Positions 1,034 to 63,519 of a DNA stretch of 64,000 nucleotides are shown piece after piece. The number at the start of each line of letters is the position of its first letter. Within the stretch, counting starts at the first letter, position 1. Below the pieces are notes generated by a model. It did not search any database, had not been told where the DNA came from, and saw only the letters and a program-made list of their open reading frames with translations. A program made the position numbers and the translations under genes. The DNA comes from Bacteroidia bacterium. GTDB taxonomy: Bacteria; Bacteroidota; Bacteroidia; DATLTG01. The DNA is taken from the NCBI GenBank assembly GCA_039924845.1, contig JBDTAC010000089.1, positions 1-64,000 of the forward strand. Reading direction: 5' to 3'.

Positions 1034-1864
1034 ATGAAAAATACTTTTCAAAAAAATAATTTTTTCGATCAGACAAATCGAGAAATTATTTTACGCGAAA
1101 TTCCGAAAAAAATAATTTCGGTAGTGCCTTCTCAGACTGAATTACTCTACGATTTAGGTTTAGATGAAGAAGTAATCGGAATCACCAAATTTTGTATTCA
1201 CCCCGAAAAATGGTTTCGCGAAAAAACACGCATTGGCGGAACAAAAAAACTTGACATCGAAAAAATAAAATTGCTAAATCCGGATTTAATTATCGCGAAT
1301 AAAGAAGAAAATGAAAAATCGCAAATTGAAGAATTGGCGCGCGATTTTAATGTTTGGATCAGCGATATAAAAACGCTGGATGATGCGCTACAAATGATTC
1401 TTCGAATAGGAGAAATTACTAATAAAAAAGAAAGAGCTGGAGAAATAAAACAAAAAATAGAAATCGAATTTGAAAAAATAATTTTTCGGCAAGTGAAAAA
1501 AAAATTTTTGAGAACGGCTTATTTCATTTGGAAAAAACCGTTTATGGTTGCTGGTGAAGACACCTTTATAGATGAAATGCTGCGTATTTGCGGACTGGAA
1601 AATGTGTTCCCGAAAAATATTTTTTCAGACACAAGAAATACGCGTTATCCTGAAATCTCGGCAGAGCAATTGAAAGCGGCAAATCCGGAAATTATATTAT
1701 TGTCGTCGGAACCTTATCCATTCAAAGAAAAACACATCGAAGAATTTAAATTGATTTGTCCGCAAGCAAAAATTAAAATTGTGGACGGTGAATTATTTTC
1801 GTGGTATGGCTCGCGTTTGTTGGAAAGTCCTGCGTATTTTGCAGAATTAATAAAAGGTTTTTAG
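1034..1864 (+). CDS. Helical-backbone metal receptor / BtuF-like substrate-binding protein
   Basis: A 276-aa protein of the class III periplasmic-binding fold used by vitamin B12 and siderophore importers. The N-terminal lobe has VPSQTELLYDLGLDEEVIGIT (about 32-52) and RIGGTKKLDIEKIKLLNPDLIIA. The C-terminal lobe has the typical AANPEIILLSSEPYPF. I see no signal peptide or lipobox, so its location is uncertain; cytosolic members of this family are common in Bacteroidota. No permease or ATPase lies beside it. The gene carries three copies of the dispersed AT-rich palindrome (about 1045-1068, 1100-1122 and 1470-1489), read as QKNNFFD, PKKIIS and EKIIF. Substrate unknown. Confidence 0.75.
   Translation: MKNTFQKNNFFDQTNREIILREIPKKIISVVPSQTELLYDLGLDEEVIGITKFCIHPEKWFREKTRIGGTKKLDIEKIKLLNPDLIIANKEENEKSQIEELARDFNVWISDIKTLDDALQMILRIGEITNKKERAGEIKQKIEIEFEKIIFRQVKKKFLRTAYFIWKKPFMVAGEDTFIDEMLRICGLENVFPKNIFSDTRNTRYPEISAEQLKAANPEIILLSSEPYPFKEKHIEEFKLICPQAKIKIVDGELFSWYGSRLLESPAYFAELIKGF
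1045..1068. repeat. Dispersed AT palindrome copy (variant form)
   Basis: The AAAAAAATAATTTTTTCGA-type copy lies four codons into the BtuF-like gene, where it is translated as QKNNFF. Confidence 0.6.
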
Positions 1865-1869
1865 TGCCA

Positions 1870-1890
1870 TCAAAAAAATAATTTTTCGAA
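1870..1890. repeat. Dispersed AT palindrome copy (variant form)
   Basis: The copy starts 6 bases after the stop of the BtuF-like gene and lies between it and the patatin gene. It has TC-A7-TAAT5-CGAA structure. Confidence 0.65.
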
Positions 1891-1951
1891 AGCATTTTAT
1901 CTTCACAAAAAATTCACGTGGTAATTTTATATTTATCCTTTTAAAATCTTG

Positions 1952-1959
1952 TAGATTTG
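1952..1959 (+). promoter_or_regulatory. Bacteroidota -7 box upstream of the patatin gene
   Basis: TAGATTTG followed by C matches the TAnnTTTG consensus 24 bases before the ATG at 1983. No clear TTTG at -33. Confidence 0.5.
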
Positions 1960-1982
1960 CAAGAGCTTATTGCTAAGCATTT

Positions 1983-4301
1983 ATGAAAATACAAAATGTT
2001 CGCTGTAAAAAAATAATTCTCGAAAGCATTTTTTCGATTGCTTTGATGACTTTTTTTATGAATACGGTGAGTGCTCAAAAAGTAGGATTGGTGCTGAGTG
2101 GAGGAGGAGCGAGCGGTTTGGCGCACATTGGCGTTATCAAAGCCTTGGAAGAAAATCACATTCCGATTGATTACATCACTGGAACTTCTATGGGTGCTTT
2201 AGTGGGCTGCATGTACGCGATTGGATACACGCCTGCGGAGATGGAAAAAATTGTTACGTCGGATCAATTTAAACATTGGGCGTACGGACAAATCGAAAAT
2301 AAATACATTTATTATTTTAAGAAAAAAGAAGAGGATGCTTCGTGGATTACAATTAAACTTTCTTTGGATTCGGCTTTAGAAACAACGCTTCCGACAAATA
2401 TTATTTCACCCATTCCAGTAGATTTTGCTTTGATGTCAAAATTATCCGCACCGGCGGCTGCGGCTCATTATAATTTTGACAGTTTAATGGTTCCCTTTCG
2501 CTGCGTAGCCGCGGATGTAGAAGATAAACAAACTGTGGTTTTTAGAAGAGGAAATTTAAGCGAAGCCGTTCGTGCTTCTATGTCTTATCCATTTTATTTA
2601 AAACCGATTTCAGTAGATGGAAAACTTTTATTTGACGGAGGTTTATACAATAATTTTCCATCAGATATAATGAAAAAAGATTTTTCGCCCGACTATGTTA
2701 TTGGCAGCAATGTTTCAGGAAATGTTCCTCCGCCTAAAGCAGATGACATCATTTCGCAAATTAAAAGTATGCTCATGAGTAAAACAGATTATGCACTGAA
2801 CTGTCCAGATGGGATTATTATTAATCCAAAAACAGACATTGCTTTGTTTGATTTTGATAATCCTCAAGAGCTTATTGACAGCGGTTATGCGGCTACAATG
2901 CGCCAAATTTCAGAAATTAAAATATGTATCCAACGTCAAGTAGACCCAACAATTTTAGCAGAAAAGCGCGCTGCTTTTATCCACAAGGAACAGCCTTTGA
3001 AATTTAAAGATATTGACATTAAGGGATTAAATCGTGTTCAAATTGCGTATGTAAAAAAAATATTGCGACATAAAACCAAAACGATTCCTATTGATAGCTT
3101 AAGACCAGAATATTTTCGCTTGATAGCGGATGATAAAATAAAAAGTATTTATCCGACGGCAAGTTACAATCCAGATGGATCTTACACGCTCAATTTAAAA
3201 ATAGTTCAAGAAAAAAAATTATTGGCAAAGTTTGGTGGCGATTTTTCAAATCGTCCGATTAGCGAAGGTTTTGTGGGATTGCAATACAATTATCTTGGCA
3301 AAACGGCCACATCCATTAGCGGAAATACGTATTTCGGAAAATTATATACTTCGGCACAGTTAAGTTCGCGTATTGATTTTCCGTTTAAAGAGCCACTTTA
3401 TATTGAACCGATGATGACTTATAACCGCTGGGATTATTTTAAAAGTAGCACTGCTTTTTTTGAAGATGTAAAGCCATCGTACTTGATACAAAACGAACAA
3501 TATGGAGAACTAAATATTGGTTTCCCTTTTGGTAACAAAGCAAAAATGGTTGCTACAGGTGGGATTGGAGACATTGTAAATAATTATTATCAGACAACAC
3601 TTTTTACACAATCGGATACCGCCGATCAAACCAATTTTAGAAATTTTTATACCCGATTAACATTTGATGTGAATAATTTAAACAGAAAACAATACGCGAC
3701 TGAAGGTGCTCGTTTTTTTGTAAAGGCAACGTATGTAAACGGCATCGAATACACACAACCCGGTTCCACATCCATCAACAAGCAACAAACTACAGAAGGA
3801 CATCAATGGATCCAGCTAAAAAGTGCGTTTGACAATTATTACAAACGACGAGGTACGTTGCGTTTAGGCGTTTATTTAGAAGGGGTTTATTCTAACCAGC
3901 CATTTTTTAATAATTACACATCCACCATTTTAATTTCTCCTGGTTTTCAGCCTACGCCTGAAAGTCAAACACTTTTTTTAGAAAACTACCATGCAAATAT
4001 TTATGCCGCAGGCGGTTTAAAAAGTATTATCACAGTTAAAAAGAATATCGAACTTCGTTTTGAAGGCTACGTTTTTCAACCGTATCAAGCCATTAGCAAA
4101 CAAACGGATTTAACAGCTGTTTACGGAAAACCACTTTCGATAAGGCATTATATTGCAACGGCAGCAGCTATTTACGAAACGCCTTTCGGTCCATTTAGTT
4201 TGAGTATTAATTATTACGATAGCCATACAGTAAACACTAATTCGCTCAGTTTTTTATTCCATTTCGGATACATTATTTTTAATCGAAAATCAATTGATTA
4301 A
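1983..4301 (+). CDS. Patatin-like phospholipase with POTRA and Omp85-type barrel
   Basis: A 772-aa protein with a signal peptide (1-31, ending VSAQ). A patatin domain follows with the oxyanion motif GGGASG (40-45), the nucleophile elbow GTSMG (Ser69) and the catalytic DGG (Asp about 218), so the Ser-Asp dyad is complete. After it come a POTRA-like segment (about 340-410, FKDIDIKGLNRVQIAYVKKI) and a beta-rich C-terminal half with alternating aromatic strands, as in an Omp85/BamA barrel. The architecture matches type Vd (PlpD-like) proteins, in which an outer-membrane barrel displays a phospholipase A. The exact lipid substrate cannot be read from the sequence. It is probably transcribed alone, since a separate -7 box precedes bamD. 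Confidence 0.85.
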   Translation: MKIQNVRCKKIILESIFSIALMTFFMNTVSAQKVGLVLSGGGASGLAHIGVIKALEENHIPIDYITGTSMGALVGCMYAIGYTPAEMEKIVTSDQFKHWAYGQIENKYIYYFKKKEEDASWITIKLSLDSALETTLPTNIISPIPVDFALMSKLSAPAAAAHYNFDSLMVPFRCVAADVEDKQTVVFRRGNLSEAVRASMSYPFYLKPISVDGKLLFDGGLYNNFPSDIMKKDFSPDYVIGSNVSGNVPPPKADDIISQIKSMLMSKTDYALNCPDGIIINPKTDIALFDFDNPQELIDSGYAATMRQISEIKICIQRQVDPTILAEKRAAFIHKEQPLKFKDIDIKGLNRVQIAYVKKILRHKTKTIPIDSLRPEYFRLIADDKIKSIYPTASYNPDGSYTLNLKIVQEKKLLAKFGGDFSNRPISEGFVGLQYNYLGKTATSISGNTYFGKLYTSAQLSSRIDFPFKEPLYIEPMMTYNRWDYFKSSTAFFEDVKPSYLIQNEQYGELNIGFPFGNKAKMVATGGIGDIVNNYYQTTLFTQSDTADQTNFRNFYTRLTFDVNNLNRKQYATEGARFFVKATYVNGIEYTQPGSTSINKQQTTEGHQWIQLKSAFDNYYKRRGTLRLGVYLEGVYSNQPFFNNYTSTILISPGFQPTPESQTLFLENYHANIYAAGGLKSIITVKKNIELRFEGYVFQPYQAISKQTDLTAVYGKPLSIRHYIATAAAIYETPFGPFSLSINYYDSHTVNTNSLSFLFHFGYIIFNRKSID

Positions 4302-5542: not shown

Positions 5543-5568
5543 CGTTCGAAAAATTAATTTTTCGAACG
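5543..5568 (+). repeat. Perfect 26-bp copy of the AT palindrome, possible intra-operon hairpin
   Basis: The core GAAAAATTAATTTTTC is flanked by CGTTC and its complement, giving a perfect 26-bp palindrome, followed by CAATTTTTTTG. It sits between rpoZ and coaBC, so it could act as a weak terminator or attenuator inside the operon. Confidence 0.7.
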
Positions 5569-5581: not shown

Positions 5582-6781
5582 ATGCTTTACGGACGAAATA
5601 TACTGGTCGGGATTTCCGGCAGTATTGCTGCCTATAAAAGTGCTTTCTTAATTCGGTTGCTGGTAAAGGCAGGTGCGAATGTGAAAGTAATAATGACACC
5701 TGCCGCCAAAGATTTTATTACTCCGCTCACACTTTCTACGCTTTCAAAAAATACGGTTTACTCCGAATTTAGTAAGCCAGATGGATCATGGGTAAACCAT
5801 GTGGATTTAGCTCTTTGGGCGGATGATATCATCATTGCTCCAGCATCTGCTAATACCATTGCTAAAATGGCACATGGGCTTTCCGACAATTTATTGATGG
5901 CAGTGTACTTATCTGCTAAATGTACTGTTTGTGTTGCTCCTGCAATGGACTTAGACATGTATAAACATCCTTCTACAAAAGAAAATTTTAAAAAATTGGC
6001 TGCTTTTGGGGTTAAAGTGATTCCTCCTGGAACTGGCGAATTAGCAAGTGGTTTACTTGGCGAAGGACGCATGGCAGAACCAGAAGATATTATTCGTTTT
6101 ATAGACGAACAGAAATTGCTTTTACATAAAAAAAAAGTATTGGTAACAGCTGGTCCCACTTATGAAGCCATTGATCCTGTTAGGTTCATAGGTAATCATT
6201 CGTCTGGAAAAATGGGCTTTGCCATTGCAGAGGAATTTGCAAAAAATGGAGCGGATGTTACCTTGGTTACTGGTCCGGTTGCCTTGCAGCAGCAACATCC
6301 AACTATTAAGCGGATAGATGTTACATCCGCCGACGAAATGTTTAAAGCCTGTACAACAAATTTTAAAAATAAAGACATTGTTGTAATGGCGGCTGCGGTG
6401 GCGGATTATAAACCGCTTGTTGTTGCGAAACAGAAAATAAAAAAAGCATCCGAAACCTTTACTATTCCATTAAGTAGAAACAAGGATATTTTGATGGAAC
6501 TCGGTAAAATGAAATCGAATAAACAAATTTTAGTTGGCTTTGCGCTCGAAACAGAAAACGAGCTTGCCAATGCCAAGGAGAAAATGAAGAAAAAGAATTT
6601 AGACATCATCGTGCTCAATTCCTTGCAGGATAAAGGAGCCGGATTTAAAAACGATACAAATAAAATAACGCTGATAGACAAATATAATAAAACGACTACT
6701 TTTGAGTTAAAATCCAAAACAGAAGTAGCCAAAGACATTGTTCAAAAAATTATTTTTTTACAGGCACACAACCATGCGTAA
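5582..6781 (+). CDS. coaBC: Bifunctional phosphopantothenoylcysteine decarboxylase / phosphopantothenate-cysteine ligase
   Basis: A 399-aa two-domain protein of coenzyme A synthesis. The N-terminal flavoprotein (CoaC) domain has GISGSIAAYKSA, the active-site segment WVNHVDLALWADDIIIAPASANTIAKMA and the substrate-clamp motif APAMDLDMY. The C-terminal ligase (CoaB) domain has TAGPTYEAIDPVRFIGNHSSGKMG and VMAAAVADYKP. Length and domain order are normal. Its last 8 bases overlap the start of the DUF4835 gene, which suggests translational coupling. A copy of the AT palindrome lies near its 3' end (about 6747-6764). Confidence 0.95.
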   Translation: MLYGRNILVGISGSIAAYKSAFLIRLLVKAGANVKVIMTPAAKDFITPLTLSTLSKNTVYSEFSKPDGSWVNHVDLALWADDIIIAPASANTIAKMAHGLSDNLLMAVYLSAKCTVCVAPAMDLDMYKHPSTKENFKKLAAFGVKVIPPGTGELASGLLGEGRMAEPEDIIRFIDEQKLLLHKKKVLVTAGPTYEAIDPVRFIGNHSSGKMGFAIAEEFAKNGADVTLVTGPVALQQQHPTIKRIDVTSADEMFKACTTNFKNKDIVVMAAAVADYKPLVVAKQKIKKASETFTIPLSRNKDILMELGKMKSNKQILVGFALETENELANAKEKMKKKNLDIIVLNSLQDKGAGFKNDTNKITLIDKYNKTTTFELKSKTEVAKDIVQKIIFLQAHNHA

Positions 6782-7679: not shown

Positions 7680-7690
7680 AAAGAACTGTC

Positions 7691-7709
7691 CAAAAATTAA
7701 TTTTTCGAA
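7691..7709. repeat. Dispersed AT palindrome copy between convergent genes
   Basis: CAAAAATTAATTTTTCGAA lies in the 60-base gap between the stops of the DUF4835 and dienelactone hydrolase genes, where it may help end transcription. Confidence 0.65.
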
Positions 7710-13041: not shown

Positions 13042-14159
13042 ACATCGCTTACCTTTCCACTTTTTATCCGTACAGAGGCGGAATCGTTCAGTTTAATACA
13101 GCTTTGTACAAAGCTTTACAAAAAGAGCACAAGGTAAATGCATACACGTTTACGCGTCAATATCCTGATTTATTATTTCCTGGAAAAACGCAATACGTAA
13201 CCGAAAATGATACGTCGGACAAAATAGAAACCTTCCGAACGCTTGATACCATTAATCCTTTCAGTTATTATACCACGGCTCAAAAAATAAAAAAAATGCA
13301 GCCGGATATTTTATTGATGAAATATTGGATGCCTTTTTTTGCACCTTCGCTCGGAACCGTTTCAAAAATGCTGCGTAAGAAAACAAAAATCATTTCGGTT
13401 TTAGACAATGTGATTTCGCATGAAAAAAGAATTGGAGATAGAGCGCTTACTAAGTATTTTCTGAATCAAAATCATGGTTTTGTGGTGATGAGTTCGCAAG
13501 TAAAAAATGATTTACTTTCTTTTTTACCGAATGCGAATTATGTTTTTCATCCGCATCCGTTGTATGATAATTTTGGAGAAAAAATTAGTAAAGAAGCCGC
13601 TTGTGATTATTTAAAACTCGATAAAAACGAAAAACACATTTTATTTTTTGGATTTATTCGAAAATACAAAGGCTTGGATACATTGCTGGAAACCTTGGCT
13701 GATGAACGTTTGAAACAACTCAATGTAAAATTAATTATTGCTGGAGAATACTACGAAGACAAATCTTTTTACGAAGAACTCATTCAAAAATATAATCTTC
13801 AAGACCGATTGATTTTGAAAACAGAATACATTCCTTCGGAAGATGTGAAACAGTATTTCTGTGCTGCGGATATTGTGGTACAACCATACAAAACAGCTAC
13901 ACAAAGCGGTGTTACGCAAATTGCCTATCAATTTGAACGACCGATGTTGGTAACGGATGTGGGCGGTTTGTCGGAAATTGTTCCGCACAATAAAGTAGGT
14001 TATGTAACGGATTCGGCACCTACGGCAATTGCTGATGCTTTACTCGATTTCTATAATAATAAGCGGGAACAAGAATTTTCTGCGAATGCAGCTATTGAAA
14101 AAAAACGTTTTCAATGGGATTCTATGGCGAAAGCCGTTATTGAGCTTTCAAAAAAATAA
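13038..14159 (+). CDS. Glycosyltransferase family 4
   Basis: 373 aa with a GT-B fold. Acceptor-side glycine motif YPYRGGIVQFN near the N-terminus; the GT1 domain has HILFFGFIRKYKGLDTLLETL, and the donor-binding region reads QPYKTATQSGVTQIAYQFERPMLVTDVGGL. The E-x7-E-like motif is diverged. Coupled by a 4-base overlap to the GT9 gene, so the two probably act on the same glycan. Its stop codon (14157-14159) lies inside a copy of the dispersed palindrome, which also codes the final KK. Confidence 0.85.
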   Translation: MNIAYLSTFYPYRGGIVQFNTALYKALQKEHKVNAYTFTRQYPDLLFPGKTQYVTENDTSDKIETFRTLDTINPFSYYTTAQKIKKMQPDILLMKYWMPFFAPSLGTVSKMLRKKTKIISVLDNVISHEKRIGDRALTKYFLNQNHGFVVMSSQVKNDLLSFLPNANYVFHPHPLYDNFGEKISKEAACDYLKLDKNEKHILFFGFIRKYKGLDTLLETLADERLKQLNVKLIIAGEYYEDKSFYEELIQKYNLQDRLILKTEYIPSEDVKQYFCAADIVVQPYKTATQSGVTQIAYQFERPMLVTDVGGLSEIVPHNKVGYVTDSAPTAIADALLDFYNNKREQEFSANAAIEKKRFQWDSMAKAVIELSKK

Positions 14160-14168
14160 TTTTTCAAA
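14146..14168. repeat. Dispersed AT palindrome copy supplying a stop codon
   Basis: TTTC-A7-TAAT5-CAAA form; its internal TAA at 14157-14159 is the stop codon of the GT4 gene. Confidence 0.7.
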
Positions 14169-15362: not shown

Positions 15363-15387
15363 TTTTTCAAAAAAATAATTTTTAAAA
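15363..15387. repeat. Dispersed AT palindrome copy
   Basis: First of two copies about 50 bases apart in the gap between the convergent acyltransferase and RND pump genes. Confidence 0.6.
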
Positions 15388-15414: not shown

Positions 15415-15436
15415 TTCAAAAAAATAATTTTTCAAA
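15415..15436. repeat. Dispersed AT palindrome copy
   Basis: Second copy in this gap, TTC-A7-TAAT5-CAAA form, 20 bases from the terminator hairpin. Confidence 0.65.
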
Positions 15437-23455: not shown

Positions 23456-23477
23456 TTCGAAAAATTATTTTTTCAAA
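23456..23477. repeat. Dispersed AT palindrome copy
   Basis: First of three copies within 180 bases in the divergent gap between the response regulator and truA. Confidence 0.65.
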
Positions 23478-23490: not shown

Positions 23491-23511
23491 TTCAAAAAAA
23501 TAATTTTTCGA
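23491..23511. repeat. Dispersed AT palindrome copy
   Basis: Second copy of the cluster, 13 bases after the first and in the variant form with the opposite strand polarity. Confidence 0.65.
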
Positions 23512-23602
23512 GCGGCTTTTTTCCCAACGAGCGTAAATACCAATCGATGTAATTGCTTATTTGTGATTTGCTAAATCATTTTAATGCGTCATATTATTTC
23601 TG

Positions 23603-23613: not shown

Positions 23614-23634
23614 TTCAAAAAAATAATTTTTCAG
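23614..23634. repeat. Dispersed AT palindrome copy in the truA leader
   Basis: It lies between the -7 box and the proposed GTG start, so it would form the 5' end of the mRNA. Confidence 0.65.
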
Positions 23635-23636
23635 GA

Positions 23637-27103: not shown

Positions 27104-27164
27104 AGCGCTCGAAATTACACGCTTTTATTTCATTCCGAAAAAATTATTTTCTAAAAGACTTTTA

Positions 27165-39053: not shown

Positions 39054-39062
39054 TTTTTCGAA
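39044..39062. repeat. Dispersed AT palindrome copy supplying the murQ stop
   Basis: AAAAAATTAATTTTTCGAA contains the murQ TAA at 39051-39053 and lies 11 bases before the next ATG. Confidence 0.7.
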
Positions 39063-39661: not shown

Positions 39662-39683
39662 TTCAAAAAATTAATTTTTCAAA
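39662..39683. repeat. Dispersed AT palindrome copy between convergent genes
   Basis: TTC, AT core and CAAA arms, 22 bases after the murQ-linked gene and 6 bases before the end of the convergent ung gene. Confidence 0.65.
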
Positions 39684-40373: not shown

Positions 40374-40385
40374 AAAAATATTTTT

Positions 40386-42143: not shown

Positions 42144-42302
42144 GAAATAAAAAATAAATTAGAAAAATAATTTTTGGCACAGCATTTGCAAACTTCTCAA
42201 CAGAACGTAAAATTTAAAGAAATAGTCTTCATTACTTCTTCATCTTAAACGTTTTATTTTGAACTAAAATTAATTAAAAATAAACTTTAAAAACCAAAAA
42301 CC

Positions 42303-43579: not shown

Positions 43580-43641
43580 GATAAAAAATATTTTTTCAAA
43601 GATATAAATTTAAACAGCCGCTACGAAGTTTACAGAACTGC

Positions 43642-47093: not shown

Positions 47094-47113
47094 GTTTGAA
47101 AAATTAATTTTTC
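47094..47113. repeat. Dispersed AT palindrome copy at the end of the TonB-like gene
   Basis: GTTTGAAAAATTAATTTTTC ends on the stop codon of the convergent TonB-like gene, 34 bases after the channel stop. Confidence 0.65.
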
Positions 47114-47583
47114 TATTTATTATCCCTTAAAATAAATTTGATAGGTAAACTCATTTGAGTCGCTACATTTTTACCATCTTGTTTTGGAGGAATCCAATTC
47201 GGCATTTCTTTTATCACTTTTAGTGCTTCAGCATCTAACTCGAGCGCATTTGTAATTCCTCTTAAAATTTTCACTTGTGATATTGTTCCTTTATCTGAAA
47301 TAACAAAGGAAACATAAATAGTGCCTTCAATTTTTTTTGTCTTTGCAGAATAAGGATAAACTGTATGCTTCTTTAAATAACTTGTCAATGAATCTTGTCC
47401 GCCTGGAAATGTTGGCATTTGTTCTACGATTATATAGGGTTTGCCTGTGTTCAATGTTTTCGGTGTGTTAGATGTGTCCATGTAGCAAACTGTGGATGGC
47501 TTATGTAATTTGTTCTGCGTGCTTTGCGCTTTTACAGATTGAAATCCAACAAAAAGAAAAAGTATCCACACAATTTTTTTCAT
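47113..47583 (-). CDS. TonB C-terminal domain protein (energy transducer type)
   Basis: 156 aa. Signal peptide (MKKIVWILFLFVGFQSVKAQ), then the TonB C-terminal domain (about 60-154: FPGGQDSLTSYLKKHTVYPYSAKTKKIEGTIYVSFVISDKGTISQVKILRGI; the YP and GxVxVxF elements are typical). There is no long proline-rich linker and the N-terminus looks cleavable, so it is not a classical TonB and may serve another periplasmic role. ExbB/D genes are not nearby. Confidence 0.85.
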   Translation of the reverse strand: MKKIVWILFLFVGFQSVKAQSTQNKLHKPSTVCYMDTSNTPKTLNTGKPYIIVEQMPTFPGGQDSLTSYLKKHTVYPYSAKTKKIEGTIYVSFVISDKGTISQVKILRGITNALELDAEALKVIKEMPNWIPPKQDGKNVATQMSLPIKFILRDNK

Positions 47584-47641
47584 GAAACGAAAGTTTACGT
47601 TTTAACAAATGTAGAAAAATAATTTTCTAAAAACAATTGGT

Positions 47642-48919
47642 ATGACGGAAGAATTGCTGCACCATATTTGGAAATTTCGCTTGTTTGATACTCAAAATTT
47701 AGTGTTGGAATCAGGCGAAAAATTAGAAATTCTAAATGTCGGATCACACAATACAGATGCTGGTCCGGATTTTTTTAATGCGCGTATTAAAATTGGAAAC
47801 ACGCTTTGGGCGGGTAATGTGGAGCTTCATATCAATGCTTCGGATTGGTACAAACACGGTCATCAACAAAATAAAGCCTACGATAATATTGTGCTGCACG
47901 TGGTTTTTGATGCAGATGTTATTGTAAATAGAAACAGCGGAGAAGCTTTTCCTACATTGGTTTTGAAGAATAAAATAAATCCTCGTTATTTAAGTAATTA
48001 CGATTATTTGAAATCCGCAAAAGTAGAAATATCTTGTGAAAAAATATTTTTTGAAACAGATATTTTTGTGTTGAATAATTGGTTGGATCGTTTGATGATA
48101 GAGCGTTTGGAACAAAAATCGGAAATGATTACGCGCTATTTAAAATTAAATCACAACGATTGGGAAGAGACATTTTACCAATTTTTGGCGCGTAATTTTG
48201 GTTTCAAAATCAATGCAGATGCGTTTGAATTACTCGCTAAATCCTTGCCAAATGCCTATTTGGCGAAACACAAAAATAATTTATTTCAGATAGAAGCTTT
48301 GTTGTTCGGTCAAGCCGGATTTTTAGAAAAAAAATTCTCGGACGATTATCCGCAGCAATTGCAAAAAGAATATTTTTTCTTGAAAAAAAAATTCCGACTC
48401 CAAAATTTAGAACCACATTTATGGAAAATGTTGCGCCTGCGTCCTGTTAATTTCCCGACTGTTCGTTTGGCACAATTCGCAAAGTTGATAAGCATTTCAT
48501 CGCATTTATTTTCAAAAATAATGGAAACAGAAACGCTGGAAGAAATTGAAAAACTACTGACTGTTGAAACGAGCGACTATTGGAAAACACATTTTCATTT
48601 CGAGAAAAAATCGCGGAAGCAAACGAAAAAGCTCGGTAAAATGGCAATTGAAAATATCGTCATTAACACGCTTGTTCCTTTCTTGTTTGTGTATGGAAAA
48701 CATAAAAGCGAAGAGGAATTTGTGGAGCGAGCTTTGACCTTTCTTCAAAAAACAAATCCTGAAAAAAATCACATCACGGAAACGTGGAAAAAATTGGGAA
48801 TGAAAATGGAGAATGCTTTTGTATCACAGGCTTCCATTCAATTGAAAAATGATTATTGCAGCCAAAAAAAATGTTTGCAATGCGCCGTCGGAAATTATTT
48901 GTTGAAGAAAGATTCATAA
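47642..48919 (+). CDS. DUF2851 family protein
   Basis: 425 aa with the family start MTEELLHHIWKFRLFDTQNL and LNVGSHNTDAGPDFFNARIKIGNTLWAGNVELHINASDWYKHGHQQNKAYDNIVLHVVFDAD. The N-terminal domain looks like a nuclease-type or beta-rich fold with conserved D, H and E, but no activity is proven. The C-terminal Cys group reads CSQKKCLQCAVGN, a possible metal site. Found across Bacteroidota as a single gene of unknown function. 47 bases separate it from mqnA. Confidence 0.85.
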   Translation: MTEELLHHIWKFRLFDTQNLVLESGEKLEILNVGSHNTDAGPDFFNARIKIGNTLWAGNVELHINASDWYKHGHQQNKAYDNIVLHVVFDADVIVNRNSGEAFPTLVLKNKINPRYLSNYDYLKSAKVEISCEKIFFETDIFVLNNWLDRLMIERLEQKSEMITRYLKLNHNDWEETFYQFLARNFGFKINADAFELLAKSLPNAYLAKHKNNLFQIEALLFGQAGFLEKKFSDDYPQQLQKEYFFLKKKFRLQNLEPHLWKMLRLRPVNFPTVRLAQFAKLISISSHLFSKIMETETLEEIEKLLTVETSDYWKTHFHFEKKSRKQTKKLGKMAIENIVINTLVPFLFVYGKHKSEEEFVERALTFLQKTNPEKNHITETWKKLGMKMENAFVSQASIQLKNDYCSQKKCLQCAVGNYLLKKDS

Positions 48920-48965: not shown

Positions 48966-49712
48966 ATGAAACTTGTAAAAATATCAGCTATTTCTTATTT
49001 GAATACGAAGCCGTTTGTGTACGGAATTGAGCATTCTGGCATTTTGAATGATTATGAAATGCAATTTGATATTCCTTCGGCTTGTGCCGAAAAATTACTG
49101 AACAATCAAGTAGATATTGGCATTGTTCCTGTGGCGATTATTCCGCTTTTAAAAGAAGCTCATATTTTGACAGATTTTTGTATTGGAGCTGTTGGCGCGG
49201 TAAATTCGGTGGTTTTGTATAGTTGCGTTCCTTTGCAGGAAATTGAAACGGTGGAATTGGATTATCAATCCAGAACTTCGGTGATGTTGACGAAAATATT
49301 AGCCAAAAATTTCTGGAAGATAAATCCGACGTGGATAAATGCTGAAAAAAATTACGAAGAAAACTTTTCTGGAAAACGTGCTGGAGTTGTTATTGGCGAT
49401 CGCACTTTTGCGCTTAAAAATAAATATCCTTTTACGTATGATTTAAGCGAAGAATGGATGAAATTTACCGGATTGCCTTTTGTTTTCGCGTGTTGGGTGG
49501 CGAATAAAAAGCTTCCTGAAAAATTTATTTCTGAATTTTCTCAAGCTATCAAATACGGAATTGAACATCGAAAAGAATTAATTTTGGAGCTTCAAAAAAT
49601 TAATTTTTACGCCACCGATGTAAAGCATTATTTGATGAAATCCATCAGCTACGAATTGGATGCGTCCAAGAAAAAAGCATTGGATTTATTTTTATCCTAT
49701 TTGAAAAAATAA
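48966..49712 (+). CDS. mqnA: Chorismate dehydratase of the futalosine menaquinone pathway
   Basis: 248 aa from ATG 48966 (MKLVKISAISYLNTKPFVYGIEH); an upstream GTG at 48957 would add MRK. Typical MqnA elements include ISYLNTKPF, VDIGIVPVAIIPLL, SRTSVMLTKIL and GDRTFALKNK. It dehydrates chorismate to 3-enolpyruvylbenzoate, the first step of the futalosine route, implying menaquinone synthesis independent of MenFD in this organism. Two palindrome copies lie at its 3' end; the second carries its stop codon (49710-49712). Confidence 0.92.
   Translation: MKLVKISAISYLNTKPFVYGIEHSGILNDYEMQFDIPSACAEKLLNNQVDIGIVPVAIIPLLKEAHILTDFCIGAVGAVNSVVLYSCVPLQEIETVELDYQSRTSVMLTKILAKNFWKINPTWINAEKNYEENFSGKRAGVVIGDRTFALKNKYPFTYDLSEEWMKFTGLPFVFACWVANKKLPEKFISEFSQAIKYGIEHRKELILELQKINFYATDVKHYLMKSISYELDASKKKALDLFLSYLKK
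49591..49609. repeat. Dispersed AT palindrome copy inside mqnA
   Basis: TTCAAAAAATTAATTTTTA codes LQKINFY in mqnA, 90 bases before the second copy. Confidence 0.6.
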
Positions 49713-49721
49713 TTTTCCAAA
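49700..49721. repeat. Dispersed AT palindrome copy supplying the mqnA stop
   Basis: TTTG, A/T core and CCAAA; its TAA (49710-49712) ends mqnA after LKK. Confidence 0.7.
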
Positions 49722-51845: not shown

Positions 51846-51887
51846 AAAAAAGCCGTTCGAAAAATTATTTTTTTGAACGGCTTTTTT
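51846..51887. terminator. gyrB terminator built on the AT palindrome
   Basis: AAAAAAGCCGTTC (51846-51858) pairs with GAACGGCTTTTTT (51875-51887) around the GAAAAATTATTTTTTT-type core. T runs occur on both strands. It lies 34 bases after the gyrB stop. Confidence 0.9.
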
Positions 51888-53676: not shown

Positions 53677-54783
53677 CTAATTATTTTTCAAAAAAGGAAT
53701 TTTACAAACCTTTGCCTTGATGGCTTTATCGCGGATTTTAATAAATATCTCCGAATCGGGTTTTGAAAAATTAATTTTTACGTAGCCCATTCCGATGCCT
53801 TTATTTAATGATGGCGATTGCGTTCCTGAAGTAACTTTTCCGATTACATTTCCTTCCATATCTGTAATTTCATAATCATGGCGCGGAATTCCACGTTCTA
53901 TCATTTCGAAACCAATTAATTTTTTGGTAACACCTTTTTCTTTCTGTTCTAAAAATATTTTTTTATTGGTGAAGTCTTTTGTGAATTTCGTAATCCATCC
54001 CAAACCTGCTTCTATTGGCGATGTTGTATCGTCAATATCGTTTCCGTACAAACAAAAACCCATTTCCAAACGTAACGTATCTCGCGCGCCCAAACCGATT
54101 GGTTTGATGCCAAATTCCTTTCCAGCTTCAAAAATCGCATTCCACATTTTATCCGCTACTTCATTTTCAAAATAAATTTCGAAACCACCAGCGCCTGTGT
54201 AGCCTGTATTCGAAATCAGTACGTTTTCAATACCGTTAAATTTTCCTTTTTTAAAAGTATAATAAGGCATTTCCGACAAATTAATATCCGTTAATTTTTG
54301 CAATGCAGGTAAGGCTTTCGGACCTTGTACCGCCAACAAAGAAGTTTTGTCGGAAATATTATGCATTTCTACATTCTTCGTATTGTGTTTCGAAATCCAA
54401 TTCCAATCCTTCTCAATATTAGAAGCATTTACCACCAACATATATGTTTTTTCATCAATGCGATACACCAACAAATCATCTACAATTCCGCCTTTATCGT
54501 TTGGCAGGCAAGAATATTGCACTTTTCCATCTGCTAACACCGCCGCATCGTTAGAAGTAACGCGTTGAATTAAATCCAATGCATTTTCACCTTTCAAAAT
54601 AAATTCGCCCATGTGCGACACATCAAATACTCCAACAGAACTGCGAACTGTAAGATGTTCGTCATTCAAACCGGAATAAGATACAGGCATATTGTATCCT
54701 GCAAAAGGAACCATTTTAGCACCCAAAGAAATGTGTTTATTTCCCAGTGCTACATTTTTTATTTCAGTGGCAGTTGTTTCCAT
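53677..54783 (-). CDS. gcvT: Glycine cleavage system aminomethyltransferase (T protein)
   Basis: 368 aa. The folate-binding fold shows [33 protein letters not shown] and the central Asp, then [14 protein letters not shown] and [22 protein letters not shown], and the C-terminal barrel [21 protein letters not shown]. It transfers the methylene group from aminomethyl-lipoate to tetrahydrofolate. The other gcv genes are outside the window. A palindrome copy near the 3' end codes KINFSKP. Confidence 0.95.
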
Positions 54784-55926: not shown

Positions 55927-55954
55927 GTCTTTGAAAAATTATTTTTTCAAAGAC
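55927..55954. repeat. AT palindrome copy with GTCTTTG/CAAAGAC arms
   Basis: A 28-base near-perfect inverted repeat 62 bases after the sigma factor gene and 78 bases before the adhesin gene. It lacks a clear T run, so it is not scored as a terminator. Confidence 0.65.
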
Positions 55955-56031: not shown

Positions 56032-59000
56032 ATGAAAAAAAAATTACTCGCAAAAAGTGTAACATTACTTTTAGTTGCAACTCTGTTAAGCCCAAACATA
56101 TTTGCACAAAACTCCGGAACAAATTGGTTAATCCATTACAACTATTCAAAAGACAGAGTTTTTTTGGAGAATAAAGGGCAGTTTTCAAATGAAGGAAATG
56201 GGAATTCGGCTATTAAATATGGGTTTGACGACGGTCAATCAAAAATTTATTTTACGGATAAAGGCATTCTGTACCGCTTCGATAAAAAGGAGGATACACC
56301 TCAAAATAATGAAGCAGGGGACAAGGATGAGCATAAAATAACCGTTAAAACAGACATTGTTTCTGCTATTTGGGAAGGCGCTAACAGCAATGTGCAAATC
56401 ATAGGTGAATCTCCAAGGTCTGATTACTTTAGCTATAGCATTAATAATAATGGAATCTTACGAAATATCAATCACATTGCAGCATTCCAAAAAATAATTT
56501 ATAAAAACCTTTATCCTAACATTGATGTAGAATATATTTTTCATCCTGATGAAGGAATTGAATATTCCTTGATTTTGCATCCAGGTGCAGATATTAATCA
56601 AGTAAAATTAAAATATTCGGATGGACATCGAGTACGTTTGGTAGATGGAGATACTCATATAACTACCTCATTTGGCGACATTATAGATCACGCACCTCTT
56701 GCATTTTATTCAGACAACCATTCCAATATTATATCCTCTCGTTTCGTAAAAAATTCGAATACCATTTTTTTTGGCTTAGTAAATTATGATACTTCAAAAG
56801 AAGTAACAATTGACCCTTGGACCATTGCTCCAGCATTTTCGAATAGTAATAAAGTTTGGAATACACAGGTTGATGCTGCAGGAAATGTATATTTATATGG
56901 AGGTGATAGTCCTTTGGCTTTAAAGAAGTACAGTGCTGCAGGATTACTTCAATGGACTTACAATACACCTTGGGATTCAGCTAATTATTGGATGGGTACG
57001 ATGATTACCGATTTAGCTGGAAACTCTTATGTTACTTCTGGTTCTAACGGTGAGATTTCAAAGATAACTACTGGAGGAGCTTTGGTTTGGCACAATAATC
57101 CTAATGGACTTTTCGGACCACTTTTCGAATATTGGCATTTGGCCTTTAATTGCGATCAAACTCAGTTAGTAGTTGGCGGAATGAAAACTCCGAGTGCGTT
57201 TTCAATCAATGGCTATCGAGGCGCCATTATGACTATTAATCTCGCCAATGGAAGTATAACGAATACGATTATTGTTGGCGGCTTTTCTGGATTAGCTACA
57301 ATTCATGAAGTCAGAGCTATTTGCCCTTCCTCCAATGGTAATTTTTATTTTATGACCTTAGATTCTATCGGATCGGTAACTCCCGCTCTAACATTAAACT
57401 ATAAATCCATTAATGGGTATAATTTTTCTTATGGTAGTCCAAGTTACACCGTTAAAGGCAACTTGGGTTTAAATGCGATGAAGACAAACGGAAATTTCAT
57501 CTATACACAAAATGGAAAAACTGTTGACAAACGTAATATAAGTAATGGAGCTATCATAGCAAGTTCTCCTATTCCAGGTGGAATTTCATCCTCCTTTTTT
57601 GGAGCAAGTTCTCCGGGTAACAGTGGATTAGATATAGACAGTTGCGGCAATGTATATGTTGGCTCTGGCAATCAAGTAGTACAATATGATGCCAATTTGA
57701 ATCAGCTTTCCACTGCTGCTACACCTTCTGCTGTATATGATGTTGCCGTTAATAAAAACGGAGAGGTAATTGCTTGTGGAAATGGGTTTGCAACCTCATT
57801 GGCAATGGCAAATTGCCATCCGATAAAATCGATTTGTGTGATATGTGTTCCTCCAACAATAAACATCACGGCTTTGCCAACTACCATTTGCGCGGGAAGT
57901 AATACTGTTCTAACAGCAAGCGGTGGAACAACTTATAGTTGGAGCACAGGCGCGACCACTAATCCAATAACATTAAATCCGGCAACTACCACTACTTATA
58001 CCGTAACAGGCACTACAGGTGGATGTTCTGGAACTGCTACGGTAACTGTTATCGTAAATCCATTACCAACAGTTGCAGTTAATTCACCAACTATTTGTGC
58101 AGGAACTTCAGCAACCTTAACAGGAACAGGTGCTACGACATACAGTTGGAGTACAGGTGCTACGACGAATCCGATAACTGTAAATCCAGCAAGTGCAACT
58201 TCTTATACGGTAACCGGCACTACAGGTGGTTGTTCAGGAACAGCAGTAGCGACAGTAACAGTAGTTCCAAGTTTAGGAATAACGATTAATCCATCACCAG
58301 TAACAATTTGTGCAGGTACGAATACGACATTGACAGCAAGCGGTGGAACAACTTATAGTTGGAGTACAGGCGCGACCACTAATCCAATAACATTAAATCC
58401 GGCAAGTACGACTACTTATACAGTAACAGGCACAACAGGTGGATGTACAGGAACGTCAACGGTAACTGTAACCGTAAATCCATTACCAACAGTATCGGTT
58501 AATTCACCAACAATTTGTGCAGGTACGAATACGACGCTGACAGCAAGTGGAGGAACAACTTACAGTTGGAGCACAGGCGCAACAACAAATCCAATAACAG
58601 TGAATCCGGCAGCAACGACAACTTATACCGTAACAGGAACTACTGGTGGCTGTTCAGGAACTGCCGTAGCAACGGTAACCGTAAACCCATTACCAGTAGT
58701 AACGGTTAACTCACCAACAATTTGTGCAGGTACGAATACGACGCTGACAGCAAGTGGTGGAACAACTTACAGTTGGAGTACAGGTGCTACAACGAATCCA
58801 ATAACCGTAAATCCTGCAAGTACGACAACTTATACCGTAACAGGAACAAAGACAGGATGTACAGGTAGTATAACAGCCACAGTAACAGTAGATCCGGCAA
58901 TCGTTTTAAATCCATCATCTACTCCAGCTACATGTGGAGGCAGCAATGGCAGTGTGGGTGTAGCAGCTTCGGGTGGTATAGGCACTTATACTTATTCTTG

Positions 59001-61794: not shown

Positions 61795-62813
61795 GAAAAA
61801 TTATTTTTCTTGCTTTTTATTTTTGTGTGTTTTCCTTTTCAGTGAAAACAAAAGCGCAAAACCTTGTGCCTAATTACAGTTTTGAAGACACGATACAATG
61901 TAGTCCAAATGGTCAATTTACAGGTTATGTGAAGAATTGGACAGGACAAGGGGGCGGGGGGGGACTCGAATATTTTACTTCACAATGCTCAGATTATTAC
62001 TTTGGAGTTCCTACAAATGATGTTGGACATCAAAATGCACATACTGGAGTGTCGTATGCGGGTATTTATACGTATGTAGATTCCCTATATTATCCCACAG
62101 ATCCTAATAACAGAGATTATATACAGGATAGCTTAATAAGCTCACTAATAGCTGGAACTAAGTATTATCTTACTTTTTACGTAAGTTTAACAGATACTAT
62201 GGCATACGCTTGCAATAATATGGGGGCGTATTTTTCTGATTCGGCTTTAGTGTTTAACAATACAACAAATGGAAGGGTAAAACCCTACCTGCATCCGCAG
62301 GTAATAAATGATGTTGTACATAACCCTTTGACTGATAAAGTAAACTGGATGAAGGTAAGCGGCAGTTTTGTGGCAGCAGGGGGGGAACAATACATTGTGA
62401 TTGGTAATTTTGTGGACGATGCTCATGTAGATACCGTTTTTGTCGGTCCAAAAAATTCGTTGTATTCATTAACAGCTTACTATTACATAGATGATGTAAT
62501 AGTAAGCACGGATAGCACATACTCAGATAGCTTGTTTACAGGAGTAAATGAAATAAAGCCTGTTAAGGCAAATGTAAAAGTATATCCAAACCCAGCAACT
62601 AATTTATTGAATGTAGCAGTGGATATGCAACAAATTAAATCAGGTAGTATTTGTTTGTATAACACAACCGGACAAAGAGTAGAATGCGAAGATTTATCTG
62701 GTAATATTACAAGCATTTCAACTAATAAATTATCAGCAGGTTTATATTATTATAGAATAACAGATAGCTATGGCAATTTAGTAAAAGCAGATAAGGTTGT
62801 TATAACGCACTAA
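61791..62813 (+). CDS. T9SS type A cargo protein with poly-G tracts
   Basis: 340 aa with a signal peptide (MRKIIFLAFYFCVFSFSVKTKAQ). The mature part begins NLVPNYSFEDTIQCSPNGQFTGYVKNWTG, a galactose-binding-like module often found in Bacteroidota surface proteins, with paired Cys. It ends in a type A sorting domain (about 255-340, VKVYPNPATNLLNVAVDMQQ ... LSAGLYYYRITDSYGNLVKADKVVI). Two runs of G lie within the coding DNA (61950-61963 and 62379-62385), unusual for AT-rich DNA. Function is unknown; probably exposed on or released from the cell surface. Confidence 0.82.
   Translation: MRKIIFLAFYFCVFSFSVKTKAQNLVPNYSFEDTIQCSPNGQFTGYVKNWTGQGGGGGLEYFTSQCSDYYFGVPTNDVGHQNAHTGVSYAGIYTYVDSLYYPTDPNNRDYIQDSLISSLIAGTKYYLTFYVSLTDTMAYACNNMGAYFSDSALVFNNTTNGRVKPYLHPQVINDVVHNPLTDKVNWMKVSGSFVAAGGEQYIVIGNFVDDAHVDTVFVGPKNSLYSLTAYYYIDDVIVSTDSTYSDSLFTGVNEIKPVKANVKVYPNPATNLLNVAVDMQQIKSGSICLYNTTGQRVECEDLSGNITSISTNKLSAGLYYYRITDSYGNLVKADKVVITH
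61950..61963 (+). repeat. Poly-G tract (G5-C-G8) within the cargo gene
   Basis: Five G, a C and eight G code GQGGGGGL (residues about 53-60). A slip of one base would truncate the protein, which is the usual form of a phase-variable tract. A second G7 run is at 62379-62385. Confidence 0.7.
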
Positions 62814-62882
62814 ATTAATTGACAATAGAGAATGGCATCTAATTGCGAAAGAGATTTTAGCAAAGCGAAAGCAAAGTTTTTA

Positions 62883-62890
62883 TAATTTTG
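62883..62890 (+). promoter_or_regulatory. -7 box upstream of the HEAT-like protein gene
   Basis: TAATTTTG, 17 bases before the ATG at 62908, fits TAnnTTTG. Confidence 0.45.
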
Positions 62891-62907
62891 TAGGAAATAA
62901 CAAAAAG

Positions 62908-63417
62908 ATGGCTGATAAAAACAATTTTTTCGATCCCGAAAATTACAATACCATTCATGTTTCAGTAGGCGCTGATGATACCCACGCTCCTAATAAAAAG
63001 AGTAATGACATTGCTGCCAAGCTCTTGCACTTATTGAGTGATCCGGAGCAGAAAGAATTTCGGCACGAAACACTTTTACTCTTGAAGAAAAATCCAAATG
63101 CTTTGGATATCCTAATGGAAGCCATCAAAAATAAGGAGATAAAAAAGAATAAGCAGTATCTGATTTCTGCCGTTTGGGAAGCCGGAATTGATGGTAGCAA
63201 ATACCTTTCTGATTTTGTAAACATTGCAATTGAACATCCTTTTTTGGAAGCCATGGAAGCTCTTACCGTTATTGAGGATATGTGTGGAAAGATGGATCAA
63301 AAGGAAATAGCAGAGAACATTAAAAAAATGGAAGTTGCCATTTCTAAAACAAGCGAAAAAGAAAGGTTTTTTTTACTCCAAACAACCTGCGATAAATTAA
63401 AGGATTTCAGTGCCTGA
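62908..63417 (+). CDS. HEAT-repeat-like protein of unknown function
   Basis: 169 aa, no signal peptide. After a disordered head (MADKNNFFDPENYNTIHVSVG) come paired helices (SNDIAAKLLHLLSDPEQKEFRHETLLLLKKNPNALDILMEAIKNKEIKKNKQYLISAVWEAGIDGSKYLSDFVNIAIEHPFLEAMEALTVIEDM) that look like HEAT/ARM units. Probably a cytosolic scaffold. No family name can be given. It lies 130 bases before a TPR membrane protein; a palindrome copy follows its stop (about 63415-63435). Confidence 0.65.
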   Translation: MADKNNFFDPENYNTIHVSVGADDTHAPNKKSNDIAAKLLHLLSDPEQKEFRHETLLLLKKNPNALDILMEAIKNKEIKKNKQYLISAVWEAGIDGSKYLSDFVNIAIEHPFLEAMEALTVIEDMCGKMDQKEIAENIKKMEVAISKTSEKERFFLLQTTCDKLKDFSA

Positions 63418-63519
63418 AAAAATAATTTTTTCATTAATCTTCCTACAATTGGTTTTCAGGTATAAGTCGAGGAGAATTCGTTTCTCAAAAGAAAATTCTT
63501 CCTGTTTACAAAAAAAACT

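What the first reader, a model, noticed from the sequence alone, without database searches (positions are those of the whole stretch)
1045..63435. Highly iterated AT-rich palindrome across the window
I found about 30 or more copies by eye of two related forms: core GAAAAATTAATTTTTC (perfect palindrome) and a variant AAAAAATAATTTTTC (or its complement), usually flanked by TTC/TTTG on the left and CGAA/CAAA on the right. They occur between and inside genes and on both strands. A given 14-16 bp string is not expected so often by chance even in AT-rich DNA. This resembles highly iterated palindromes such as HIP1 of cyanobacteria, or uptake-sequence systems, but the sequence is different. Possible roles: recognition by a methylase, a nucleoid protein or DNA-uptake machinery, or a small mobile palindrome.
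Basis: partly seen in the sequence, partly recalled or inferred. Interest (0 to 1): 0.8.

Follow-up and report, generated by a model that had tools for sequence, protein, structure and literature searches.

The report
Palindrome repeated once per kilobase genome-wide
An uncultured Bacteroidota bacterium carries an estimated 2,500 copies of one 22-letter DNA palindrome, roughly one per thousand letters, built letter by letter into and between its genes, while its nearest relative found here has almost none; it behaves much like the DNA 'self' tags of naturally transformable bacteria, but what reads it is unknown.

Summary
The window holds 56 sites; 847 kb of the genome holds 810 (0.96/kb, extrapolated 2,500). 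Controls: 6 in the reversed sequence; 26 in 1.79 Mb of the nearest relative found (same GC; its reversal 14). GAAAAATTATTTTTT occurs 758 times here, at most 9 times in 294 other genomes of the class. About half the sites lie in genes, where 111 of 136 alignable ones are ungapped against the relative, so arose by substitution, at permissive positions (0.92/kb in genes 40-50% identical to the relative, 0.02/kb above 80%). Sites in genes show no base-pair covariation: the duplex is what is recognised. A minority between genes became terminators. Neighbouring sites prefer 36 and 48-49 bp spacing, suggesting bent or wrapped DNA. Genome behaviour resembles Haemophilus/Neisseria uptake sequences, but no secretin and no DUF5689 (a domain of one Riemerella competence protein) was found. 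An architectural protein is the main rival. The reader protein is unknown.

The parts
1047..1068 (.). site, score 25.0, in gene
   Evidence: matrix scan
1469..1490 (.). site, 25.7, in gene; RNA fold no better than shuffles (z 0.0)
1492..1513 (.). site, 18.5, in gene
1608..1629 (.). site, 25.5, in gene
1869..1890 (.). site, 32.0, between tandem genes
2004..2025 (.). site, 18.2, in gene
5545..5566 (.). site, 37.3, between tandem genes; inside a perfect 26-bp palindrome; RNA stem of 11 pairs
6741..6762 (.). site, 23.4, in gene
7688..7709 (.). site, 31.7, between convergent genes
14147..14168 (.). site, 30.6, at the end of a gene
15366..15387 (.). site, 26.0, convergent; 49 bp from the next site
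15415..15436 (.). site, 34.8, convergent; pair partner; weak RNA fold (-3.2 kcal/mol)
21188..21209 (.). site, 26.5, in gene
23456..23477 (.). site, 34.8, divergent; 35 bp from the next site
23491..23512 (.). site, 37.1, divergent; pair partner
23614..23635 (.). site, 24.6, in gene
25522..25543 (.). weak site, 13.8, in gene
26223..26244 (.). site, 37.2, convergent
27134..27155 (.). site, 22.0, divergent
27193..27214 (.). site, 30.3, divergent
27966..27987 (.). site, 31.0, convergent
29203..29224 (.). site, 33.4, in gene; RNA fold no better than shuffles (z -0.4)
29273..29294 (.). site, 25.9, in gene
29364..29385 (.). site, 26.0, in gene
29811..29832 (.). site, 20.6, in gene
30208..30229 (.). 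site, 16.6, in gene
32458..32479 (.). site, 28.4, in gene
36422..36443 (.). site, 39.7, convergent; core of a perfect 42-bp palindrome with a 19-bp RNA stem: likely bidirectional terminator
37009..37030 (.). site, 19.9, between tandem genes
38138..38159 (.). site, 38.4, called in gene (37042-38163)
38361..38382 (.). site, 18.6, in gene
39041..39062 (.). site, 35.6, at the end of a gene
39662..39683 (.). site, 31.1, convergent
40220..40241 (.). site, 21.6, in gene
40369..40390 (.). weak site, 15.3, between tandem genes
41422..41443 (.). site, 19.2, in gene
41989..42010 (.). weak site, 14.0, in gene
42033..42054 (.). site, 22.5, in gene
42158..42179 (.). site, 20.4, divergent
43579..43600 (.). 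weak site, 15.5, in gene
43822..43843 (.). site, 17.4, in gene
44109..44130 (.). weak site, 15.7, in gene
44310..44331 (.). site, 34.1, in gene
45306..45327 (.). site, 17.7, in gene
45571..45592 (.). weak site, 15.5, in gene
47095..47116 (.). site, 22.3, convergent
47610..47631 (.). weak site, 14.8, divergent
48035..48056 (.). site, 28.1, in gene
49591..49612 (.). site, 22.5, in gene
49700..49721 (.). site, 28.3, at the end of a gene
51856..51877 (.). site, 40.3, convergent, just after gyrB (49848-51812); 19-bp RNA stem: likely bidirectional terminator
53762..53783 (.). site, 21.5, in gene
55930..55951 (.). site, 32.1, between tandem genes
56485..56506 (.). weak site, 15.2, in gene
62912..62933 (.). 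weak site, 14.1, in gene
63413..63434 (.). site, 19.6, at the end of a gene

Best explanation
Shown: a genome-wide, duplex-DNA-level recognition site, a 22-bp palindrome with AT/GC-patterned flanks, at about one per kilobase. In genes it was built in place by point substitution where protein sequence tolerates it, and it is peculiar to this genome among those searched. Inferred: it is read by a two-fold symmetric (dimeric) DNA-binding protein that bends or wraps the flanks. Inferred and least certain: the copies spread by molecular drive because fragments carrying the site are preferentially taken up or recombined, that is, a self-DNA signal working like the uptake sequences of Haemophilus and Neisseria, but with a Bacteroidota-type entry route that does not use a type IV pilus secretin. 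Some copies between genes were later made into terminators. The confidence given is for the uptake-type mechanism; that it is a DNA-level recognition site I hold at about 0.9.
For: Density 0.96/kb, against about 1 kb mean USS spacing in H. influenzae (PMC7811141, passages) and 1,892 DUS in 2,184 kb of N. meningitidis Z2491 (PMC2397512, section 7). About half the sites are in genes (395 of 808 classified), against 34-42% of DUS. Made by substitution: 111 of 136 alignable sites ungapped (17 insertion, 8 deletion), all three frames used, identity 0.36 over the site against 0.53 over the whole alignments. Permissive positions: 0.92/kb in genes 40-50% identical to the relative, falling to 0.02/kb above 80% (P 8e-14 for >80% against 40-60%), as reported for DUS (PMC2397512, section 11). 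Over-representation falls with mismatch load: 12-bp core AAAAWTAWTTTT 809 against 36, one mismatch 1148 against 455, two 3710 against 2850, a gradual fall as in Bakkali's Table 1, though less steep (PMC1939737, section 5). Terminator co-option is strongest between convergent genes: 15 of 79 against 2.9 expected, 5 of 395 against 4.5 in genes, as for Neisseria DUS hairpins (PMC1852404, passages). AT-rich flanks, as USS have. ComEC and DprA are present. Almost absent from the nearest relative found.
Against: No secretin (type IV pilus pore) match in this 99.1%-complete genome. No DUF5689, a domain of one essential Riemerella competence protein; the other three unknown Riemerella proteins were not searched. 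ComEC and DprA are also in relatives without the motif, so they do not discriminate. Known uptake sequences are not palindromic. Two-sided flanks and preferred 36 and 48-49 bp spacings fit a wrapping protein at least as well. The lower density in genes without a good homologue (0.50 against 0.81/kb in 40-60% genes, P 3e-5) is not significant against all genes of 40% or more (0.57/kb, P 0.17). The mismatch drop is 14-fold here (21.3 to 1.5) against 92-fold in H. influenzae, with different motif length and background model. Uptake, competence and population recombination could not be tested.
Confidence: 0.37

Rival explanations
1. Architectural address: binding sites of a lineage-specific nucleoid protein that dimerises on the palindrome, wraps or bends about 45 bp on either side and assembles cooperatively on neighbouring sites.
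For: Mirrored GC and AT blocks on both sides. AT content around isolated sites shows further peaks near 30.5 and 42.5 bp beyond the block at 17.5, clear between genes, weak in genes. Pair spacings peak at 48-49 (33 pairs) and 35-37 bp (18 pairs) with spacers that are not copies of each other but carry a T-tract then an A-tract; best period 12.5 bp, Rayleigh 23.8, none of 1000 random sets as high. Even total density: chi2/df 0.82 over 41 pieces, below the 95% range of random placement, 0.91-2.07. Present also in 34 of 61 divergent intergenic regions.
Against: Nucleoid proteins usually bind degenerate sites (recalled); here many one-off forms of the core are scarce. Selection on each of some 2,500 architectural sites, partly at the cost of protein sequence, seems weak (inference). 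HU-family genes number 3 here and 4 in the relative almost without the motif. Among pairs more than 50 bp apart the periodicity is not significant (P 0.057), and the best-fit AT period depends on the range fitted: 10.75-12 bp between genes, 10.75-17.75 in genes. Intragenic sites alone are over-dispersed (chi2/df 1.46), and gap variation does not differ from random placement.
Confidence: 0.3
2. HIP1-like by-product: a repair, recombination or methylation bias that converts near-matches to the palindrome, with no function of the sites themselves.
For: Palindromic, about 1/kb and made by substitution, as in Elhai's mismatch-repair model for HIP1 (PMC4390886, abstract and section 18 part 1).
Against: The motif is 22 bp with a 42-bp footprint, longer than methylase sites (recalled). 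Preferred pair spacings are not expected. Methylation and methylase genes were not examined.
Confidence: 0.12
3. Intrinsic terminators: the palindrome is an RNA hairpin at gene ends.
For: Dense near stop codons; 86 of 686 genes have the stop inside a site, and 97 of 171 sites between tandem genes 80-600 bp apart lie in or before the first 30% of the gap. 32 of 40 convergent regions carry a site. Pairing beyond chance (arm >=13): 15 of 79 convergent against 2.9, 24 of 268 tandem against 8.7. Two window copies fold to 19-bp stems, -20.9 and -23.3 kcal/mol.
Against: 395 of 808 sites are in genes, without pairing beyond chance (5 of 395 against 4.5). The mirrored Y/R positions pair at or below expectation in 7 of 8 comparisons (two positions, four classes), the eighth at z +1.5. 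The flanking AT blocks hold both A and T on both sides in the four classes, not a T-tract only. 34 of 61 divergent regions hold a site.
Confidence: 0.05
4. Mobile or replicating small palindrome (REP/MITE-like).
For: Many copies, confined to this genome among those searched. 17 of 136 alignable intragenic sites do coincide with an insertion.
Against: 111 of 136 alignable intragenic copies show no gap and 8 a deletion. Spacers of 48/49-bp pairs are 46% identical on average, highest 81%. Flanks show composition preferences only.
Confidence: 0.02

Closest known systems
USS (Haemophilus influenzae and other Pasteurellaceae)
   Same: About 1/kb; conserved core plus AT-rich tracts; over-representation falling with mismatch load; co-opted in terminators; preferred pair spacings (PMC7811141, PMC1852404: passages; PMC1939737: section 5).
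   Different: USS is a 9-bp non-palindromic core with AT-tracts on one side and a type IV pilus/secretin route; here a 22-bp palindrome, tracts on both sides, no secretin found, no uptake data.
DUS (Neisseria)
   Same: About 0.9/kb; 34-42% in genes; permissive parts of the core genome; hairpin terminators enriched between convergent genes (PMC2397512: sections 7, 11; PMC1852404: passages).
   Different: Unrelated 10-mer, not palindromic; paired copies make the hairpin, whereas here each site is itself a palindrome.
HIP1 and alternate HIPs (cyanobacteria)
   Same: Palindrome iterated about once per kb (PMC4390886: abstract, section 18 part 1).
   Different: HIP1 is the 8-bp GCGATCGC tied to orphan methyltransferases; no sequence similarity; here a longer footprint and regular pair spacings.
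REP/BIME elements (recalled)
   Same: Palindromic, numerous, common at gene ends.
   Different: REPs are extragenic and duplicate as units; here about half the sites are in genes and most alignable ones arose by substitution.

Membership tests
DNA uptake sequence (USS/DUS) | Roughly one copy per kb, far above expectation | tested here: met
   0.96/kb; 297 against 1.6 expected for GAAAAATTATTTTT
DNA uptake sequence (USS/DUS) | In genes by substitution, at permissive positions, rare in conserved genes | tested here: met
   111 of 136 ungapped; 0.92 to 0.02 per kb with rising identity
DNA uptake sequence (USS/DUS) | Rare in accessory genes | tested here: inconclusive
   0.50/kb against 0.81 (P 3e-5) or 0.57 (P 0.17) depending on the comparison; about 31% of the relative not held; 31 genes with a partial homologue (0.29/kb) left out
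DNA uptake sequence (USS/DUS) | Steep fall from perfect to one-mismatch copies | tested here: inconclusive
   12-bp core: representation 21.3, then 1.5, then 0.3, against 182.9, 2.0, 0.22 in H. influenzae; models differ
DNA uptake sequence (USS/DUS) | Subset co-opted as terminators, mainly between convergent genes | tested here: met
   15 of 79 convergent against 2.9 expected; 24 of 268 tandem against 8.7; in genes 5 of 395 against 4.5
DNA uptake sequence (USS/DUS) | Type IV pilus secretin for DNA entry | tested here: not met
   PF00263 no match in G000; found in 2 of 7 genomes searched
DNA uptake sequence (USS/DUS) | Preferential uptake of DNA with the motif | not testable with these tools
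   needs living cells
HIP1-type iterated palindrome | GCGATCGC or GC-rich alternate | tested here: not met
   motif is AT-rich, 22 bp
HIP1-type iterated palindrome | Cognate methyltransferase in the genome | not tested
   no methylase search made
REP/MITE-like mobile repeat | Copies are inserted or duplicated units | tested here: not met
   111 of 136 alignable intragenic sites ungapped; spacers 46% identical on average
Intrinsic terminator | Pairing stem selected as RNA | tested here: not met
   no excess pairing in genes; met only for a subset between genes
Site of a dimeric architectural DNA-binding protein | Two-fold symmetry with phased flanks | tested here: met
   raw mirrored profiles; the matrix was made symmetric by construction; the period itself is loosely defined
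Site of a dimeric architectural DNA-binding protein | A protein that binds it | not testable with these tools
   no candidate identified

The most novel reading that the evidence does not exclude
An independently evolved self-DNA recognition system in Bacteroidota: a palindromic, wrapped, phased uptake-type signal read by an unknown, secretin-free entry or recombination machinery, with about 2,500 genomic copies whose spread has measurably reshaped protein sequences.
Probability: 0.28. Interest if true: 0.92.

Novelty: new variant of a known kind. Interest (0 to 1): 0.75.

Why it matters
Self-recognition motifs of this density are described, in the papers seen here, for Pasteurellaceae and Neisseriaceae, and HIP1 for cyanobacteria; the role of HIP1 and the entry machinery of competent Bacteroidota are open. 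A further, unrelated, palindromic case with a relative almost free of the motif allows tests of how such motifs arise, whether drive or function maintains them, and what they cost proteins. If architectural instead, it would be a chromosome whose protein phasing is written in about one well-defined sequence word per kilobase.

Tried and rejected
Rejected: chance and AT-richness (Markov models, reversed sequence, held-out pieces, same-GC relative). Rejected: two motif families (one base apart). Rejected as general explanation: RNA hairpin/terminator and inserted mobile element. A phage origin got no support: exact 22-mers turned up in only 7 stretches of the viral collection of 2.9 million contigs, one place each (two self-symmetric, listed on both strands).

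Led nowhere: a survey of pieces of other genomes of 12 kb or more for an iterated motif of their own (68 pieces ranked, own pieces among them; top 45 printed) is too weak: only 2 of 5 own pieces put this motif on top. HU-family, ComEC and DprA do not separate this genome from relatives. The long site-free stretches looked at hold varied genes; 5 of 10 proteins scanned matched a Pfam family, with no single pattern. Papers searched for the sequence strings: 4 listed, none on an iterated bacterial motif by title (listing only). Uptake sequences in Bacteroidetes/Bacteroidota: 0 papers. Other literature searches; from these I opened only the six papers cited.

Limits: genes were called by my own longest-ORF script, so gene-edge classes are approximate. 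The matrix was trained on part of the same genome (held-out check). Expected false sites are between 0.7% (6 of 810, reversal) and about 4% (13-17 of 360, order-5 simulation). 808 of 810 sites were classified; 2 within 45 bp of a piece end were dropped. Of 183 sites in genes with a reciprocal best match, 47 outside or near the ends of the alignment were dropped, leaving 136. The conservation table uses genes of 150 aa or more and the best tblastn segment, so paralogues may enter; its 'partial' class (31 genes, 0.29/kb) was left out of the P values.
Full report
WHAT IS THERE. Searches of genus, family and order returned no other held genome. The core GAAAAATTAATTTTTC occurs 4 times in the window and AAAAAATAATTTTTC or its complement 12 times. 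Aligned with their flanks, both belong to one motif: TTYRAAAAAWTAWTTTTTYRAA, 22 bp, where the two W positions beside the central TA vary. In 464 kb the 11-mer AAAATTATTTT or its complement was seen 315 times, the 12-mer AAAATTAATTTT 55 times and the 10-mer AAAATATTTT 147 times, all with the same flanks (lengths differ, so these counts are not directly comparable). The profile extends to 42 bp: GC-rich 11.5-13.5 bp from the centre, AT-rich at 16.5-20.5 bp.

ABUNDANCE AND CONTROLS. A matrix trained on 464 kb finds 449 sites there, at a threshold set so that 20 positions of a simulated genome pass, and 360 in 383 kb held out, against 3 in the reversed held-out sequence and 2-17 in nine Markov simulations. 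In all, 810 sites in 847,286 bp, 0.96/kb, reversed control 6; extrapolated, about 2,500 in the genome. The relative G001 has the same GC (35.8% against 35.6%) but 26 sites in 1.79 Mb, its own reversal giving 14. GAAAAATTATTTTTT: 381 + 377 in this genome; in 294 other genomes of the class the highest total is 9, and 122 of 294 have any. In 12 other genomes reached by GyrB it has 0-5 copies. The 16-mer: 71 here, one copy each in 3 of 23 other genomes. Sites occur in each of the 41 pieces, evenly in total (chi2/df 0.82), less so for intragenic sites alone (1.46).

WHERE. With my own ORF caller, of 808 sites 395 are in genes (0.53/kb), 268 between tandem genes (4.6/kb), 79 convergent (5.1/kb), 50 divergent (3.4/kb) and 16 at piece edges. 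At least one site lies in 133 of 188 tandem, 32 of 40 convergent and 34 of 61 divergent intergenic regions of 60-1000 bp. Between tandem genes they crowd towards the upstream stop codon; 86 of 686 genes end inside a site.

HOW COPIES AROSE. 255 reciprocal best pairs with the part of G001 then held (1.02 Mb) have a median identity of 58.8%. Of 136 intragenic sites that could be aligned, 111 show no gap, 17 an insertion here and 8 a deletion. Starting frames are used 73, 44 and 19 times. Mean identity over the site is 0.36 against 0.53 for the pairs. Recurrent peptides are QKNNFSN, EKIIF and LKNYF, often where the relative has other residues. In genes of 150 aa or more, density falls with conservation: 0.92/kb at 40-50% identity to G001, 0.76 at 50-60, 0.62 at 60-70, 0.36 at 70-80 and 0.02 above 80 (1 site in 47 kb, 35 genes). 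Genes without a homologue in the 69% of G001 held, or with one under 40%, have 0.47 and 0.54; 31 genes with a partial homologue have 0.29. The no-homologue and under-40% genes together are below the 40-60% class (P 3e-5) but not significantly below all genes of 40% or more (P 0.17). So in genes the motif is mostly written by substitution where protein allows. Intergenic copies were not compared with the relative.

DNA, NOT RNA. If an RNA hairpin were selected, mirrored positions would covary. In genes they do not: arms of 13 or more pairs in 5 of 395 against 4.5 with flanks shuffled between sites. Convergent sites: 15 of 79 against 2.9; tandem: 24 of 268 against 8.7; divergent: 1 of 50 against 0.8. 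So the motif is a duplex-DNA signal, and some intergenic copies became terminators. In the window, 36422-36443 and 51856-51877 fold to 19-bp stems at -20.9 and -23.3 kcal/mol; 5545-5566 to an 11-pair stem; 15415-15436 only weakly; two intragenic copies no better than shuffles.

PHASING. Sites pair at preferred distances: 33 pairs at 48-49 bp and 18 at 35-37, with few at neighbouring distances. The spacers are not copies of each other (mean identity 0.46, highest 0.81), but T-tracts stand at about +17 to +20 and A-tracts at about +28 to +31 between the sites. Around isolated sites AT content shows further waves near 30.5 and 42.5 bp, clear between genes and weak in genes. The best period of pair distances is 12.5 bp (none of 1000 random sets as strong), but this rests on the two main peaks: beyond 50 bp it is not significant (P 0.057), and the AT-profile period is 10.75-12 bp between genes by fitted range and poorly defined in genes. 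I read this as DNA bent or wrapped on a protein; this is inference.

HOW SHARP. GAAAAATTATTTTT is seen 297 times against 1.6 expected. Its one-off forms outside the positions where the motif itself varies sum to 78 against 22; the forms I set aside as tolerated (first letter, and A at the seventh, eighth and tenth letters) are numerous, 14 to 140 each (my sums over). With the degenerate 12-bp core AAAAWTAWTTTT, counts are 809 against 36, one mismatch 1148 against 455, two 3710 against 2850; in G001 55 against 32, 579 against 491, 3680 against 3738. Over-representation thus falls gradually, 21.3, 1.5, 0.3, where Bakkali reports 182.9, 2.0, 0.22 for H. influenzae (PMC1939737, section 5).

MECHANISM. 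A motif kept in some 2,500 places, partly at a cost to proteins, needs a maintaining force. Uptake-biased recombination is the known one with this signature. Density, share in genes, permissive positions, mismatch trend, AT flanks and terminator co-option parallel USS/DUS (PMC1939737 section 5; PMC2397512 sections 7 and 11; passages of PMC1852404 and PMC7811141). Against it, no secretin is found. Bacteroidota can be competent by another route: in Riemerella anatipestifer, ComEC, DprA, ComF, RecA and four proteins of unknown function are essential (PMC8459023, abstract and sections 19, 21). Here ComEC and DprA are present, but DUF5689, a domain of one of the four, is not; the other three were not searched. 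I put uptake-type self-recognition at 0.37 and an architectural protein at 0.3, and do not file the motif as a member of the uptake-sequence family.

NOVELTY. Searches for the sequence and for uptake sequences in Bacteroidetes or Bacteroidota found no earlier report in the held library, which lacks most subscription papers. I rate it a new variant of a known kind (genome-wide iterated motif), with an unknown reader.

Noticed in passing
window 10074-10264 and 61360-61603; L014 about 7086-7233: Intergenic arrays of one 21-bp tandem repeat family (around ACTAAGARCTG); 19 exact cores in 847 kb here and 2 in 1.02 Mb of G001.
   Followed up: partly
window 57913-58844: 4.5 copies of a 207-bp repeat inside the 1739-aa gene 56032-61251, which ends in a T9SS type B sorting domain.
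   Followed up: no
window 31296-36407: 1703-aa protein whose first 880 residues match the PorU2-like type IX secretion sortase model, with a sorting-domain match just under cut-off near its end.
   Followed up: no
genes of the sampled genome: 86 of 686 genes have their stop codon inside a site; a recurring stop-to-centre distance of 2 bp fits the TAA of the motif centre serving as stop. Not compared with expectation.
   Followed up: partly
W positions beside the central TA, and the Y/R positions of sites: Mirrored positions are often less complementary than expected (for example 0.26 against 0.48 at the W pair in tandem regions), so the two half-sites tend to differ.
   Followed up: no
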